A stretch of 64,000 nucleotides of DNA from Blastococcus saxobsidens. Its GTDB lineage: Bacteria > Actinomycetota > Actinomycetes > Mycobacteriales > Geodermatophilaceae. This document shows, piece after piece, positions 16,452 to 53,835 of the stretch. Position 1 is the stretch's first letter; every line of letters starts with the position of its first letter. Both the position numbers and the translations under genes were made by a program. Where the stretch lies: positions 1-64,000 of the forward strand of contig NZ_JAAGWG010000006.1 of the NCBI RefSeq assembly GCF_010682065.1. Direction: 5' to 3'. The notes beneath the pieces are model-generated. The model did no database searches and was not told the origin of the DNA. It saw only the letters and a list, made by a program, of their open reading frames with translations.

Positions 16452-17897
16452 TCAGGTGGCCGGTTCCGACAGCGGGAGCAGCACCCGGAAACGGGTGTCC
16501 CCCGGCGACGACGTCACCCGCAGGTCCCCGCCGTGCCGCTTGACCACGACCCGCCACGACACGTCGAGACCCAGGCCGGTCCCCTGCCCCACGGGCTTGG
16601 TCGTGAAGAAGGGCTCGAACACCCGCGACCGCAGCTCGGCCGGGATGCCGGGCCCCGTGTCGGCGATCTCGACCAGCGCGTGCTCGCCGTCGCGGGCCGT
16701 CCGGACGGTCAGGGTGCCCTCGCCGGCCATGGCGTCGAGGGCGTTGACGACGAGGTTGGTCCAGACCTGGTTGAGCTCGCCTGCGTAGGCGGGTACCTCC
16801 GGCAGGGTCCGGTCGTAGTCCTTGACCACCGTCACGCCGGGCGGGATCTTCCCGCCCAGCATCACCAGCGTCGCGTCCAGACCCGCGTGCAGGTCGGTGG
16901 GCTGGTGCGGCGTGCGGTCCATCTGCGAGTACTGCTTGGCCGCGTCCACCAGGGCGGAGATGCGGCGGGTGCTGTCGGCGATCTCCACCAGCAGCGTCTC
17001 GGTCTCGACGGTGTAGGCCAGCCAGCGCAGGGCGGGTTCGAGGAAGGACGGCGCGACGGCATCCGTCACGCGGTCGAGGTCCTCGGGCACGAGCCCGGCG
17101 GCGACGAACACCCCGGCCAGCTCCCAGGGCCGGGTCACCCCGTGCCCGTCCAGCCACTCCCCCAGCCGGTCCTCCAGGTCCGAGCGCTCCAGCGTGGAGA
17201 GCTCCTGGGAACCGCTGATGCGGGCGACGAACTCCTCCTGCAGCCCGGTCAGCGACCGCAGCACCTCGCCGTCGATCGTGCCCTCGGACAGCAGCGCCAG
17301 CTTGTGCCGCATGCCCGCGAACCGGTCGCGCAGCGCCTCGGTCGCGCGGGCCGCCGCGGCCGCCGGGTTGTTGAGCTCGTGGGTCAGCCCTGCGCTCAGC
17401 TTGCCCAGGGCCAGCAGCCGCTCCCGCTGCCCGACCAGCTCGGCGGAGTTCCGCTGCCCGACGAACATGCCCTCGAGCAGGTGAACGGCCATCGGGTACC
17501 ACTGCCGGAACACCTCGGCGAACGGCCCGGCCGGCAGGGCCAGGAACCGGCAGTCGGTGACCGCCCGGACCGTCGCAGGGTAGCGCTGCTCCAACCGGTC
17601 GCCGAAGTAGAACTGCACCGCGCCGGAGTAGACGCCGCGGTGCGACGTCCGGACCATCTCCACCTCGCCGCCGCCCACGAGGCGGAGCATCGTCATCGTC
17701 CCCTCGAGCAGGACGAAGAAGCAGTCGGCGGGCTCGCCCTCGACCGACACGTCGGTGCCGGCCGGGCAGTCGACGACGTCGCCGTTGCCGGCCACCCACG
17801 CCAGCTGCTCGTCGTCGAGGTCCTCGAAGAGGAAGAGCCCGCGCAGCTCGCCGGCCGGCAACCGGCGCGGCGATGCCTGCTGCCCCTGCGCGGTCAC
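16452..17897 (-). CDS. cNMP-domain sensor histidine kinase
   Basis: 481-residue soluble sensor kinase. Residues 20-140 form a CRP-type cyclic-nucleotide-binding fold, but the phosphate-binding cassette is divergent (FYFGDRLEQRYPATVRA in place of FGE...RSATV), so cNMP binding is uncertain. The dimerisation/phosphoacceptor box LSAGLTHELNNP places the phosphorylated His at 173. The HATPase domain has an N-box NLVVNALDAM, DTGPGIP and GQGTGLGLDV. There are no membrane segments. The GTG start overlaps the stop of the upstream response-regulator/FAD-reductase gene by four bases (GTGA), so that REC domain is the obvious phosphorylation partner. Confidence 0.88.
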   Translation of the reverse strand: MTAQGQQASPRRLPAGELRGLFLFEDLDDEQLAWVAGNGDVVDCPAGTDVSVEGEPADCFFVLLEGTMTMLRLVGGGEVEMVRTSHRGVYSGAVQFYFGDRLEQRYPATVRAVTDCRFLALPAGPFAEVFRQWYPMAVHLLEGMFVGQRNSAELVGQRERLLALGKLSAGLTHELNNPAAAAARATEALRDRFAGMRHKLALLSEGTIDGEVLRSLTGLQEEFVARISGSQELSTLERSDLEDRLGEWLDGHGVTRPWELAGVFVAAGLVPEDLDRVTDAVAPSFLEPALRWLAYTVETETLLVEIADSTRRISALVDAAKQYSQMDRTPHQPTDLHAGLDATLVMLGGKIPPGVTVVKDYDRTLPEVPAYAGELNQVWTNLVVNALDAMAGEGTLTVRTARDGEHALVEIADTGPGIPAELRSRVFEPFFTTKPVGQGTGLGLDVSWRVVVKRHGGDLRVTSSPGDTRFRVLLPLSEPAT

Positions 17898-19530
17898 CGC
17901 TCCCCCAGGTAGCGGTGCACCAGGGTGACCGCCATCGCGCCCTCACCGACCGCCGAGGCGACCCGCTTCACCGACTCCGCGCGCACGTCGCCGGCGACGA
18001 AGACGCCCGGCACGCTGGACTCCAGGTACCAGGGGTCCCGGTCCAGCGCCCACCCGGGCGGACGCCGACCGTCGTCGACCAGCCCGGGCCCGGTGGGGAT
18101 GAACCCCCGCCGGTCCCGGACGACCACCCCGTCCAGCCAGTGCGTGCGGGGCTCACCGCCGATGAACACGAAGAGGTGGCCGGCGTCGTAGGTGGTCCGC
18201 TCGCCGGTCCGGGCGTCCTGCAGCGTCACCTGCTCGAGGTGGTCCTCGCCGTGCGCCTCGGCGACGGTGGTGCAGGTGTGCACGTGGACGTTCTCGATCG
18301 CGGCCAGCTGCTCGATCAGGTAGTGCGACATCGACGCCTCCAGCGCCGGCCCGCGCACGAGCAGGTGGACCGAGCTCGCGTAGCGGGCGAAGAACACCGC
18401 CGCCTGCCCCGCCGAGTTCGCGCCCCCGACGATGAACACCTCCGTGCCCGCGCAGGCCGCCGCCTCGGTCATGGCCGAGCCGTAGTACACGCCCTTGCCG
18501 GTGAGGGCGTCGGCGCCGGGCACGCCGAGGCTCCGGTACGACACGCCGGTGGCCAGGACGACGGCGTGGGCTGCGATGGTGCTGCCGTCGTCGAACCGCA
18601 CGACCCGCTTGGGCCCGTGGGCCTCCAGCGCGACGCAGTCACGGGTCAGCAGCAGCTCGGCGCCGAACTTGCGCGCCTGGCGCCACCCGAGACACCGTTG
18701 GGGAAGCCGAGGTAGTTCTCGATCCGGCTGCTCTGACCGGCCTGCCCGCCGGTCGCCTCGCGCTCGACCAGCACGGTCCGCAGCCCCTCCGACGCGCCGT
18801 AGACGGCGGCACCGAGCCCGGCCGGCCCACCGCCCACGACCACCAGGTCGTAGAAGTCCGCCTCGGGCGCGGTGCTCAGCCCGACGACGGCGGCGAGCTC
18901 GCTCTCGGTGGGCGCCTTCAGCACGACGCCCTCCGGGGTGACGATCACCGGGACGTCGTCCGGGCCGGCGCCGGCGGCCTCCAGCAGGCGCTGGCCCTCA
19001 GGCTCGTCCACGCTGTACCAGCGGTAGGGCACGGCGTTGCGGGCGAGCAGGTCCCGGGCGCGGAACGACGGCGCCGACCACCGGTGCCCGACCAGTCGGA
19101 CGTCCGCCACCACCGCATCGGGGCTGTCCCGCCAGGTCTGGATCATCTGGTCGAGGACCGGGTAGAGCTTCTCCTCGGGCGGGTCCCAGGGCTTGAGCAG
19201 GTAGGAGTCGACGTCGACCAGGTTGATCGCCTGGATGGCGGCGTCGGTGTCGGCGTAGGCGGTCAGGAGTGCCCGCCGGGCCCGCGGGAACAGGTCCATG
19301 GCCTGCTCGAGGAACTCGATGCCGTTCATCTCCGGCATCCGGTAGTCGGCCAGGAGCACCGCGACGGTGTCGCCGCGCAGCTTCAGCTCCCGCAACGCCT
19401 CCATCGCCTCGCGTCCCGACGACGCGCGCAGCACGCGGAAGTCCTCGCCGTACTTCCGCCGGAGGTCGCGCGCGACGGCGCGGGAGACCCCGGGGTCGTC
19501 GTCGACGCTGAGGAGAACCGGTTTGCCCAT
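17894..19530 (-). pseudogene. fused response regulator/thioredoxin-reductase-like FAD protein, frameshifted
   Basis: Two adjacent frames encode one protein. The 5' part (19530 to about 18690) holds a receiver domain with phospho-Asp62 (LLADYRMPEMNG), a thioredoxin/glutaredoxin-like middle (about 135-215) and the FAD-binding VVVGGGPAGLGAA and GGQAGQSSRIENYLGFP. It then runs into a stop near 18646. The 3' part continues in another frame from QARKFGAE (about 18680) through the NADPH-binding GGANSAGQAA and the FAD motif VFVAGDVRAESVKR to the stop at 17894. About 22 bases appear missing at the break compared with the family. The CATCDG redox motif of true thioredoxin reductases is replaced by GVYYGSAM. 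ATG 19530 follows GGGAG. This is either a real inactivation or an assembly error. Confidence 0.8.
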
Positions 19531-19745
19531 CCTGACTCCCATCGGCGGCCGCGCTCCGCCCGCGTCGGGAACGGGTACGCGCGGACGGCGCCGCGAGCCG
19601 TTGTCGCGCTGCTCTCGTGCTGCCGCCCACGACGCTAGTCGGCCACGGCCCCCCGGCACAGCCGGTCACGAGAGCTACGGGCACTGGACGGCGTCCGTAG
19701 CGTTGTCCCGTCCCCGGAGCACGTCGTCCGTCCAGGAGGCCGGCC

Positions 19746-20090
19746 ATGTCAGCACCTGCCATCGAGCCTGCGGTGCCGCCCAGCGGGAGCGGTTGCGTCG
19801 AGTGCGAGAGCGACGGGGGCTGGTGGTTCCACCTCCGCCGGTGCGCGCAGTGCGGCCACATCGACTGCTGCGACTCCTCGCCGAGCCGGCACGCCCGCGC
19901 GCACGCGGCCTCCGCCGGCCACCCGGTCGTCCGCAGTTTCGAACCGGGTGAGGAGTGGTTCTGGGACTTCGACGCCGACCGGCCGGTGGCCGGCGCCCCG
20001 CTGGCCCCGCCGCAGCACCGCCCCCTCGACCAGCCCGCACCCGGGCCGCGCGGTCGCGTGCCCGACGACTGGACCGCCCGCCTGCACTGA
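19746..20090 (+). CDS. UBP-type zinc finger domain protein
   Basis: 114-residue protein whose N-terminal 60 residues are a bacterial ZnF-UBP domain. Candidate zinc ligands are C17, C20, C33, C36, C41, C42, H38, H49, H53 and H59, in the arrangement CVEC...CAQCGHIDCCDSS...H...H. In eukaryotes this fold binds the free C-terminal tail of ubiquitin. In bacteria its ligand is not known to me. The rest is Pro-rich and probably disordered apart from an aromatic WFWDFD patch. ATG 19746 follows AGGAGG. It is divergent from the response-regulator/FAD-reductase gene with 215 bases between them, and I believe this neighbourhood recurs in other genomes. Confidence 0.85.
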   Translation: MSAPAIEPAVPPSGSGCVECESDGGWWFHLRRCAQCGHIDCCDSSPSRHARAHAASAGHPVVRSFEPGEEWFWDFDADRPVAGAPLAPPQHRPLDQPAPGPRGRVPDDWTARLH

Positions 20091-20240: not shown

Positions 20241-21266
20241 GTGCACGCCGGGATCGAGCACACGGCGGGGGCGCGAGTGAACTGGACGACTGCGGGCGGG
20301 GTGGGTCACCCCCCGGCCGGGGGCTTCCCGCACGACGCCCTCCTCCACGACTCGGTCGACGAGCTCGTCGGCACCGTGCTGCCGTTCGTGCGCGACGGGC
20401 TGGACGCCGGTGACGCCGCGATCCTGGCCGTGCAGCCCGACGCCTCGGCGCTGCTGCGCGACGCCCTCGGCGACGACCCGCGGCTCGTCGTCCTGGACCA
20501 GGACCGGGTGTACGGGCCACGGACGCCCGCGGCCATCAGCTCGCTGCGCCGGCTGGCCAGGGAGCACGCACCGGGCGCCGGCCGCCGGGTCCGTGTCGTC
20601 GGCGAGATCGACTTCGGGCCGACCGCGCGCGACTGGCTGGAGTGGGAGCGCTACGAGTCGGTGATCAACGAGGCGCTGCGCGGCTGGGACCTGTGGGGGG
20701 TGTGCCTGTACGACACCTCGCGCCTCCCGGACCCCGTGCTGGAGTCCGCGCGCCGCACGCACGGCCAGCTGGTCAGCCCCACGCAGCGGACGCCCAACCC
20801 CGACTACACCGACCCCGCGACGTTCCTGCGCTCGCTGCCGATCCCCGACGAACCGCTGGAGCGCACCGCTCCCCGGCTCGAAGCGGGCGACGTCCGCGAC
20901 TTCATCGGGCTCCGGCACGCCGTCGCCGCCGAGCTCGCCGGGCTCCAGGCGCCCGCCGACCTGATCGAGGACTTCCTGCTCGCCGTCGACGAGATGACCT
21001 CGAACGCGGTGCGGCACGGCCTGCCACCGGTCAGCCTGCGGCTGTGGACCGCGCCGGACCGCGTCGTCTGCACCATCACCGACGGCGGCCCCGGCTGGGA
21101 CGACCCGTTCGCCGGGTACGGCCCGGCGCACGGGGAGGACCTCTCCCGGGGCGGCATGGGGCTGTGGCTGGCCCGGCAGCTGTGCGACCACGTCGACATC
21201 ACCGGCGGCGAGCACCACCCCGGCACCGGCACGATCAGCGTGCGCCTGACCACGCGCCTGCCCTGA
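20241..21266 (+). CDS. MEDS sensor domain / anti-sigma-type HATPase protein
   Basis: 341-residue two-domain regulator. Residues 30-195 resemble the MEDS (methanogen/methylotroph DcmR sensory) domain, with HDSVDELVGTVLPFVRDGL. Residues 215-341 are a GHKL ATPase of the RsbW/SpoIIAB kind, with N-box DEMTSNAVRHG, ITDGGPGW and GGMGLWLARQL. Such proteins phosphorylate or sequester STAS antagonists or sigma factors. GTG 20241 has GGGGAG upstream; GTG 20277 is an alternative. No sigma factor is adjacent; STAS proteins are encoded at 4.4 and 48.2 kb. A role in stress partner-switching is inference. Confidence 0.82.
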   Translation: MHAGIEHTAGARVNWTTAGGVGHPPAGGFPHDALLHDSVDELVGTVLPFVRDGLDAGDAAILAVQPDASALLRDALGDDPRLVVLDQDRVYGPRTPAAISSLRRLAREHAPGAGRRVRVVGEIDFGPTARDWLEWERYESVINEALRGWDLWGVCLYDTSRLPDPVLESARRTHGQLVSPTQRTPNPDYTDPATFLRSLPIPDEPLERTAPRLEAGDVRDFIGLRHAVAAELAGLQAPADLIEDFLLAVDEMTSNAVRHGLPPVSLRLWTAPDRVVCTITDGGPGWDDPFAGYGPAHGEDLSRGGMGLWLARQLCDHVDITGGEHHPGTGTISVRLTTRLP

Positions 21267-53468: not shown

Positions 53469-53679
53469 GGAAGGGAACTGCTCCAGATGCAGGGCACAGC
53501 GGTCCGACGGCGTTCGACGCGGCGGACTGCTGCGAAGTGGTCGAGTGGCAGCGGGTGTCGGGCGAGGGCCCGGGCACTCAGCGCGGGGAAGGCGCGCGCG
53601 AGGCTCCGTACCGGCTGTCGTTCGGTGCAAGGTGGGCCCGCAGGCTCGCCATGCGGCGGCGCTCCGTTTCTCCTGTCTC

Positions 53680-53835
53680 GCCGCCTACCGGGTTAGCTGA
53701 CGGGTTCGGGCCGGAGAAGTGTGGCCCTACTCGCACCGGGTCGTGCCCGGTGCGCGATTCACCCCAGTACTGCGGTGGGTCCCCGGTTCGCCGGAAGCCC
53801 GAGGGCTGCAGCGATTCGGCGGCGCCCGGCGGACC
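53680..53835 (-). ncRNA. c-di-AMP riboswitch (ydaO/yuaA type)
   Basis: Read on the minus strand, the leader shows the conserved ydaO order: GCCGAATCG, GAACCGGGGACCCAC, GGGGTGAATC, a CACCGGGC/GCCCGGTG-type variable stem, GTAGGGCC, then the diagnostic CCGAACCCGTCAGCTAACC followed by GGTAGGCGG. These blocks bind two c-di-AMP molecules in known members. It lies about 210 bases upstream of the transglycosylase ATG. In the family, c-di-AMP generally switches the gene off, by termination or another mechanism; I see no classical T-tract terminator here. Confidence 0.88.

What the first reader, a model, noticed from the sequence alone, without database searches (positions are those of the whole stretch)
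16452..20090. Redox two-component module: cNMP-domain kinase, REC-thioredoxin-FAD reductase and bacterial UBP zinc finger
The kinase and the REC-FAD gene overlap by four bases, so the natural phosphorylation target is an enzyme rather than a transcription factor: phosphorylation of D62 would gate a flavin reductase. A UBP zinc finger, best known as a ubiquitin-tail binder, is encoded divergently next door. Seen: domains and overlaps. Inference: the three form one pathway in which a redox signal, not transcription, is the output. I believe similar neighbourhoods exist elsewhere but know no described function.
Basis: partly seen in the sequence, partly recalled or inferred. Interest (0 to 1): 0.75.

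Follow-up and report, generated by a model that had tools for sequence, protein, structure and literature searches.

The report
Kinase-controlled flavin reductase, broken here
In an actinobacterium close to Blastococcus, a sensor-kinase gene overlaps the gene for a flavin enzyme that carries a signal-receiver domain, and the same pairing recurs in several bacterial phyla, in part of them with a small zinc-finger gene alongside; the kinase would switch the enzyme directly instead of acting through gene expression, but in this genome the enzyme gene has a frame-shifting deletion and is likely not working.

Summary
The domains, the 4-base overlap and the UBP finger are real, but the window's REC-flavoenzyme is not one open frame: a 22-base deletion at about 18682, absent from 8 of 8 relatives, splits it. 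Elsewhere the unit is conserved. In 196 genomes of the class, 86 of 97 kinase matches lie beside a REC-flavoenzyme; 58 of 80 cross-phylum loci have an adjacent kinase. Among actinomycete loci the receiver's Asp/Thr/Lys set is intact in 86 of 89 proteins beside a kinase and in 2 of 30 selected orphans. That supports phosphotransfer, though losses are few independent events and selection favoured divergent orphans. The enzyme is not a thioredoxin reductase: 203 of 203 relatives lack its first redox cysteine, and the glutaredoxin-fold domain has no CxxC. A UBP gene lies within 1 kb in 21 of 80, 15 of 80 and 7 of 8 loci (class, cross-phylum, own genus/family), and directly upstream of at least 11 of 19 cNMP-flavoenzyme fusions. 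The finger lacks the arginine recalled as holding ubiquitin's tail. Signal, substrate and direction of control are unknown. REC-reductase architecture is in print; ten searches of an open-licence library found no description of the three-gene unit.

The parts
16452..17897 (-). Histidine kinase, 481 aa, GTG start
   Evidence: H-box His173 (codon 17379-17381) conserved in 83 of 83 aligned kinases
17505..17768 (-). cNMP-binding-like domain of the kinase (residues 44-131)
   Evidence: Pfam PF00027 E 1.2e-11; at the recalled PBC Glu position Glu in 3 of 83, at the Arg position Tyr in 80 of 83
16467..16778 (-). HATPase_c domain of the kinase (residues 374-477)
   Evidence: Pfam PF02518 E 1.5e-24
17894..17897 (-). 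GTGA overlap: stop TGA of the upstream frame and kinase start GTG
   Evidence: read from sequence; a -4 offset in 38 of 78 pairs in the class sample, starts chosen nearest to the upstream stop
18646..19542 (-). First piece of the broken REC-flavoenzyme gene: receiver, glutaredoxin-fold domain, first part of the FAD domain (likely start Met at 19530)
19174..19512 (-). Receiver (REC) domain; phosphoacceptor D62 codon at 19345-19347
   Evidence: Pfam PF00072 E 1.1e-14; residues checked
18865..19119 (-). Glutaredoxin/mycoredoxin-fold domain without active-site cysteines (approximate limits)
   Evidence: Pfam Glutaredoxin only E 0.079; family profile matches Mrx1 2lqo E 2.4e-9; model of a relative's domain and fold search; no CxxC at the site in 203 of 203
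18682..18683 (-). Junction of a 22-base deletion that shifts the frame (placement may differ by a base)
   Evidence: alignment with 8 relatives, each longer by 22 bases here
17894..18683 (-). Second piece of the broken gene: rest of the FAD/NAD(P)-binding domain, in a different frame; first internal start codon 18601
19543..19745 (.). Intergenic region between the divergent reductase and UBP genes
   Evidence: coordinates; divergent layout also in 7 of 8 relatives
19746..20090 (+). UBP-type zinc-finger protein, 114 aa
   Evidence: Pfam PF02148 E 1e-12; PDB relative 2ida E 2.4e-19; the Cys and His expected to bind zinc conserved in 64 or 65 of 66

Best explanation
A histidine kinase gene overlaps the reading frame of a receiver-glutaredoxin-flavoenzyme gene and has a UBP zinc-finger gene nearby; the kinase likely phosphorylates the receiver's D62 so as to gate a predicted NAD(P)H:flavin oxidoreductase, and in this genome that enzyme gene is split by a 22-base deletion and so would not make a working protein. 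Proposed working order in intact relatives: an unknown cytoplasmic signal acts on the kinase's cNMP-like domain (inferred). The kinase autophosphorylates on H173 (inferred from family) and passes the phosphate to the receiver (inferred, supported by the match between receiver residues and kinase presence). The receiver changes the neighbouring cysteine-free glutaredoxin-fold domain, which would serve as a docking and transmission piece rather than a thiol carrier (inferred). That in turn permits or blocks electron flow from NAD(P)H through FAD to an acceptor that is not a thioredoxin disulfide (inferred from the missing cysteines). The UBP protein is the most likely partner or acceptor-side adaptor of the flavoenzyme itself, because it also travels with versions that have no kinase beside them (inferred). 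The same output module is wired in a second way when a cNMP domain is fused to it in place of the receiver (shown).
For: Pairing: 86 of 97 kinase rows in 196 class genomes lie beside a REC-flavoenzyme (the window, 80 fetched loci, 5 by coordinates or later loci). 58 of 80 cross-phylum loci have an adjacent kinase, 39 downstream and 19 upstream. Receiver residues: intact in 86 of 89 with a kinase adjacent, 3 of 3 with one elsewhere in the locus, 2 of 30 selected orphans; both of those 2 have a kinase about 17-24 kb away on the same contig. A duplicate (64-65% identical to the query) without a kinase has Met in place of the receiver Lys (L225). UBP: counts; the only other family that recurs directly beside the pair, the rest being generic and scattered. 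Not a thiol reductase. Model: TrxR fold; the Lactococcus enzyme scores TMt 0.92 in the entry titled FR conformation (5mh4) and 0.62 in the one titled FO (5mjk). Precedent for cysteine-independent docking of a thioredoxin fold on response regulators: PMC9584953, abstract and one Results section read. Deletion.
Against: No phosphotransfer, cofactor or turnover was measured. The receiver-loss contrast rests on few independent events: 23 orphans form one clade, plus L225 and partial losses in two Ktedonobacteria. The orphans were picked by me from listed rows without an adjacent kinase, most of them 40-46% identical to a query with an intact receiver, which favours degenerate receivers. Nine of 12 orphans outside the actinomycete sample, mostly cyanobacterial, keep an intact receiver with no kinase in the fetched locus, so adjacency is not required. 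11 of 97 kinase rows are not beside the enzyme. UBP is absent from 59 of 80 class units and 65 of 80 cross-phylum loci. The class searches scored only the best 7 or 8 candidates per genome, so absences are soft. The window copy itself is broken, so nothing is shown for this strain.
Confidence: 0.6

Rival explanations
1. The flavoenzyme is a redox sensor, not an output: the flavin or NAD(P)H state changes the receiver's readiness to take or keep phosphate, and the kinase's real output is another response regulator or the UBP protein.
For: No acceptor-site cysteines. A family that I read as NarL-type regulators (by eye, not by a search) lies 0.2-4.5 kb from the enzyme in 8 locus groups.
Against: Flavoenzymes with degraded receivers and no adjacent kinase form a clade of their own, so the flavoenzyme has a job without the kinase. 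No regulator family recurs directly beside the pair.
Confidence: 0.2
2. An ordinary thioredoxin-reductase-like system: the annotation 'thioredoxin-disulfide reductase' is right and a cysteine elsewhere does the work (for example the Cys a few residues beyond the lost CxxC).
For: The FAD domain aligns with thioredoxin reductases over about 320 residues. A cysteine at that place is present in 159 of 203.
Against: First redox Cys position is Gly in 195 of 203 and Cys in none; the other Cys is replaced in 44 of 203, by Met, Tyr, Val, Leu, His, Thr and others.
Confidence: 0.08
3. The window's frameshift is a sequencing or assembly error and the unit is intact and working in this strain.
For: Draft genome of 77 contigs. 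The kinase is still 81-92% identical to same-genus copies, and both pieces of the enzyme gene are otherwise open, as expected without long decay.
Against: The gap is a clean 22 bases, not a single-base slip; a recent real deletion would look the same.
Confidence: 0.35
4. The UBP gene is a chance neighbour in the window and not part of the system.
For: Absent from 59 of 80 class units and from L185 in the same genus. UBP domains also occur elsewhere, for example fused to an antiporter in this genome.
Against: Within 1 kb in 21 of 80, 15 of 80 and 7 of 8 loci, on either side and either strand, and directly upstream of at least 11 of 19 cNMP-fused relatives. With at most 4 zf-UBP matches per listed genome, chance adjacency would be under about 1% per locus (my arithmetic).
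Confidence: 0.12

Closest known systems
'Fused response regulator/thioredoxin-disulfide reductase' (UniRef name; REC-TrxR architecture, called 'Mycobacterium-like' in PMC5847659)
   Same: Same domain order and family; close relatives of the query carry this name or 'FAD-dependent oxidoreductase'. Passages of PMC5847659 mention REC with thioredoxin reductase.
   Different: No CxxC, so the enzyme name is misleading; the two passages seen do not discuss kinase or UBP partners.
'Cyclic nucleotide-binding domain-containing thioredoxin-disulfide reductase' (cNMP-Grx-FAD fusion)
   Same: Same middle and FAD domains, same UBP neighbour in at least 11 of 19.
   Different: Sensor fused in cis; no receiver; no kinase match in the six fetched loci L199-L204; separate clade (6 of 6 together, support 1.0).
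Low-molecular-weight thioredoxin reductase / AhpF
   Same: FAD- and NAD(P)-binding fold; AhpF is the top full-length fold match and, from recall, also has thioredoxin-fold domains in front.
   Different: Redox-active cysteines absent in both domains.
TrxR-like ferredoxin-NADP reductase
   Same: TrxR fold (several in the hit list); recalled to lack the CxxC as well.
   Different: Matches cover the FAD domain only and score lower than TrxR.
Mycoredoxin-1 / glutaredoxin
   Same: Fold of the middle domain; invariant Pro at the place of the recalled cis-Pro.
   Different: No active-site CxxC.
Bacterial UBP-finger protein of PDB 2ida and eukaryotic ZnF-UBP (USP5, USP13, HDAC6)
   Same: Zinc-finger family and ligands.
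   Different: No Arg at either candidate pocket position in 66 of 66 bacterial sequences aligned here.

Membership tests
Two-component system | Kinase with phosphorylatable His and HATPase | tested here: met
   H173 in 83 of 83; PF02518 E 1.5e-24, PF00512 below cut-off
Two-component system | Receiver with acidic pair, Asp, Thr/Ser, Lys | tested here: met
   D11 D12 D62 T90 K113 in the window; survey
Two-component system | Kinase and regulator genetically paired | tested here: met
   86 of 97 kinase rows; 58 of 80 cross-phylum loci
Two-component system | Phosphotransfer from kinase to receiver | not testable with these tools
   needs purified proteins
Low-Mr thioredoxin reductase | FAD/NAD(P)-binding two-domain fold | tested here: met
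   (intact relatives); in the window only as two frames
Low-Mr thioredoxin reductase | CxxC redox centre in the NAD(P) domain | tested here: not met
   0 of 203 with Cys at the first position; alignment
Glutaredoxin/mycoredoxin | Thioredoxin-type fold | tested here: met
   (Foldseek E no better than 2.1e-3)
Glutaredoxin/mycoredoxin | Active-site Cys (CxxC or CxxS) | tested here: not met
   CxxC at the site in 0 of 203; first position Cys in 1 of 203
Canonical cAMP/cGMP-binding domain | Glu and Arg of the phosphate-binding cassette (motif recalled) | tested here: not met
   Glu in 3 of 83, Tyr at the Arg place in 80 of 83; placement rests on recall and on the alignment
Ubiquitin-binding ZnF-UBP | Zinc ligands | tested here: met
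Ubiquitin-binding ZnF-UBP | Arg that holds the ubiquitin C-terminus (recalled: USP5 R221, HDAC6 R1155) | tested here: not met
   0 of 66 at positions 38 and 43, the two possible alignments
Fused response regulator/thioredoxin-disulfide reductase (database family) | REC plus Pyr_redox_2 in one chain, homologous over full length | tested here: inconclusive
   met by relatives; in the window only across two frames

The most novel reading that the evidence does not exclude
A widespread, undescribed bacterial switch in which phosphorylation of a receiver domain turns a cysteine-free flavin reductase on or off through a dead glutaredoxin domain used purely as a mechanical coupler, with a ubiquitin-type zinc finger repurposed as the enzyme's dedicated partner; the same output module is controlled either by a fused cNMP-like sensor or by a kinase carrying such a sensor, and secondary loss of the kinase leaves a degenerate receiver behind.
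Probability: 0.35. Interest if true: 0.82.

Novelty: new variant of a known kind. Interest (0 to 1): 0.6.

Why it matters
Many response regulators act on genes (general knowledge). The labels in databases ('thioredoxin-disulfide reductase', 'ubiquitin' finger, 'cyclic nucleotide-binding') each name a feature that fails a residue-level test here, so current annotation may point experiments the wrong way. The recurrent UBP gene gives a concrete route to what bacterial UBP fingers do.

Tried and rejected
Thioredoxin reductase reading: rejected on the missing CxxC. Of 203 proteins, three (L059, L061, L064) have a CxxC a few residues beyond the TrxR site and seven others have one elsewhere in the chain.

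Search for further common partners: ORF clustering (80 aa or more, families in at least 5 locus groups) over 178 sources gave, beside the flavoenzyme, the kinase and UBP, an antisense artefact (88 of 91 members overlap the kinase on the other strand) and scattered families that I read by eye as short-chain dehydrogenases, ABC ATPases, NarL-type regulators, aldo/keto reductases and others. No metabolic context emerged.

The library holds open-licence papers only. Burroughs, Iyer and Aravind 2011, on prokaryotic treble-clef fingers (seen only as a reference), is not held and may discuss bacterial UBP neighbourhoods; so 'not described' holds for these searches alone. Passages only were seen of PMC5847659, PMC4506424, PMC6599016 and PMC13421787; abstract, outline and one section of PMC9584953.

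Slips and dropped rows: an attempt to include the genome's own TrxR-like gene in an alignment took a wrong frame and was not used. In the residue survey L198-L204 (no receiver), L051.0 and L087.1 (second pieces of loci whose other piece was kept) were dropped before counting. Exceptions among kinase-adjacent proteins are L015 and L020 (contig-cut) and L185 (start placed too far upstream). L096 and L110 entries are 12- and 106-residue artefacts, left in the denominators. The 30 orphans are those I chose to fetch (L195-L197, L205-L220, L222-L229, L241-L243), not every orphan row.
Full report
WHAT IS THERE. The kinase (16452-17897, minus) has a cNMP-binding-like domain, a HisKA match below the Pfam cut-off and a HATPase. 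Its GTG start overlaps the TGA of the frame upstream by four bases. Upstream lies a receiver domain with the acidic pair, D62, T90 and K113, a middle domain that Pfam barely sees (Glutaredoxin E 0.079) and a Pyr_redox_2 FAD domain. Divergently placed, 203 bases from that frame's start codon at 19542, is a UBP finger of 114 residues. The nearest named relatives of the kinase are from Blastococcus (92% and below), so the genome is Blastococcus or close to it.

THE GENE IS BROKEN IN THIS GENOME. The receiver frame stops at 18646, and the rest of the FAD/NAD(P) domain is in another frame. A Streptomyces relative of 558 residues (L003, annotated record) matches as two pieces, 8-290 and 296-556. Eight copies from the genus and family (L185-L192) match through without a stop and are 22 bases longer at one point. 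The own genome gave no second copy: its only further match covers part of the FAD domain at 36% (not examined further). Seven of the 22 same-genus relatives sampled carry a copy of the 66-68% class. It is thus an accessory unit that is either freshly damaged here or mis-assembled.

THE UNIT IS REAL ELSEWHERE. I searched 196 genomes of the class with an intact REC-flavoenzyme, the window kinase and the zf-UBP model (the protein searches scored at most 7 or 8 candidates per genome, and the match lists are cut). The kinase search listed 97 matches in 81 of 196 genomes. Of these, 86 lie beside a REC-flavoenzyme on the same strand: the window itself, 80 by fetched loci L013-L092 (78 within 400 bases by the test, the others being L063 with a gap of about 0.5 kb and L087 with a split enzyme gene), and five by coordinates or later loci (G177:C167, G008:C119, G158:C196, G156:C19 twice). 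The eleven others are G186:C306, G158:C171, G156:C57, G062:C14, G159:C23, G043, G071:C157, G125:C6, G049:C9, G018 and G071:C270 (G159:C23 from coordinates only); three of them run into a contig end and several are fragments. In 38 of 78 pairs the genes overlap by four bases (starts chosen nearest to the upstream stop). There the kinase is directly downstream in 39, directly upstream in 19 (mainly Bacteroidota), elsewhere in the locus in 8 and not in the locus in 14. Annotated plasmid records show the same pair in Streptomyces, Tsukamurella, Deinococcus, Caballeronia, Nostoc and Gloeothece (where the kinase is labelled 'ATP-binding protein').

A NATURAL CONTROL FOR PHOSPHOTRANSFER. Many actinomycetes have REC-like flavoenzymes without an adjacent kinase. 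I scored the residues a receiver needs (acidic pair, D62, Thr/Ser90, Lys113). In the actinomycete sample the full set is present in 86 of 89 proteins with an adjacent kinase (the three others are cut by a contig end or have a misplaced start). It is present in 3 of 3 with a kinase elsewhere in the locus, in 2 of 30 without, and in 0 of 1 more with short flanks. The two intact orphans, L226 and L227, have a kinase about 17-24 kb away on the same contig. A Fisher test on 86/3 against 2/28 gives 1e-21, but it overstates the case. The rows are related: 23 orphans form one clade with support 0.98. And I picked the orphans, mostly from rows 40-46% identical to a query with an intact receiver, which favours degenerate ones. 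L225 is an informative separate case: a close duplicate (64-65% identical to the query) with an adjacent UBP gene, no kinase, and Met in place of the receiver Lys. Outside this sample the contrast is weaker: 57 of 58 with an adjacent kinase, 7 of 8 with one in the locus, 9 of 12 without (mostly cyanobacterial), 2 of 2 with short flanks; plasmid records 7 of 7. Adjacency is therefore not required, and unseen kinases may serve those orphans.

WHAT THE ENZYME IS NOT. Thioredoxin reductases have a CxxC in the NAD(P) domain. The aligned place starts Tyr-Gly: the first Cys position is Gly in 195 of 203 and Cys in none. The middle domain matches mycoredoxin-1 by profile (2lqo, E 2.4e-9). The model of a relative's domain (mean pLDDT 90) matches glutaredoxin-like proteins, with Foldseek E-values no better than 2.1e-3. 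It has no CxxC at the site in 203 of 203. The full-length model of a same-genus relative (L188; mean pLDDT 88, pTM 0.69) matches TrxR structures. The Lactococcus enzyme scores TMt 0.92 in its FR entry (5mh4) and 0.62 in its FO entry (5mjk); most other listed TrxR entries fall near 0.63 or near 0.9. This agrees with an enzyme that does not need the domain rotation of TrxR, but it is a property of a predicted model. TrxR-like ferredoxin-NADP reductases are, from recall, known cysteine-free cousins. A thioredoxin fold that meets a response regulator need not use thiols: Salmonella thioredoxin docks on response regulators even without its cysteines (PMC9584953, section read). I propose the same docking role here, fused in one chain.

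TWO WIRINGS OF ONE OUTPUT MODULE. The Grx-FAD module also occurs fused to a cNMP domain and, once seen, without either (L198). In the class sample 19 of 23 listed matches to such a fusion (E at or below 1e-110) cover the cNMP part. At least 11 of the 19 have a zf-UBP match directly upstream on the same strand (the list was cut, so this is a lower bound). So the UBP gene goes with the flavoenzyme, not only with the kinase.

THE UBP FINGER. It lies within 1 kb of the unit in 21 of 80 class loci (20 on the same strand, 17 after and 3 before; 1 after on the opposite strand), 15 of 80 cross-phylum loci (all after, same strand), 7 of 8 genus/family loci (all divergent, as in the window) and 2 of 24 kinase-less loci. 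Re-association in different layouts argues for a working link; its absence from most units argues against an obligatory one. The Cys and His expected to bind zinc are conserved in 64 or 65 of 66 sequences, but the Arg that, from recall, holds ubiquitin's C-terminus is absent in 66 of 66 at both candidate positions. This genome's other UBP finger is the C-terminus of a Kef-type antiporter (Na_H_Exchanger, TrkA_N, zf-UBP; 'Kef-type' is my reading).

THE KINASE'S SENSOR. The PBC Glu and Arg that define cAMP/cGMP pockets (recalled) are replaced in nearly all of 83 kinases, whereas the cNMP-fused flavoenzyme L200 keeps a Gly-Glu there. The ligand is unknown.

VERDICT. A well-conserved kinase/flavoenzyme pair with a recurrent UBP partner; architecture known by name, unit and mechanism not described in what I could search; signal, substrate and direction of control unknown; copy in this window frameshifted.

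Noticed in passing
window 53668-53831 (-): c-di-AMP riboswitch (ydaO/yuaA leader), 67.8 bits against a cut-off of 38; the only Rfam match in the window at gathering thresholds.
   Followed up: no
window 20241-21266 (+): RsbA-family anti-sigma regulator (MEDS sensor plus HATPase) just downstream of the UBP gene, above the NCBIfam cut-off; matched near the unit in two of eight relatives, L185 and L188.
   Followed up: partly
G000:C16:61668-61862 (L002): Second UBP finger of this genome, at the C-terminus of a Na+/H+-exchanger-type antiporter with a TrkA_N domain. A number of other UBP hits lie in open frames of 500-700 residues, perhaps the same fusion.
   Followed up: partly
L195-L197, L205-L224: Actinomycete clade of flavoenzymes with degenerate pseudo-receivers and no adjacent kinase; function unknown.
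   Followed up: partly
L087 (G191): Another REC-flavoenzyme split into two frames (8-310 and 310-555), so such breaks are not unique to the window.
   Followed up: no
L227 (G159:C23): A REC-flavoenzyme flanked by two UBP genes, one on each side and on opposite strands.
   Followed up: no
L103, L111, L125, L136: Two or three kinase matches of this type downstream of one REC-flavoenzyme on the same strand.
   Followed up: no
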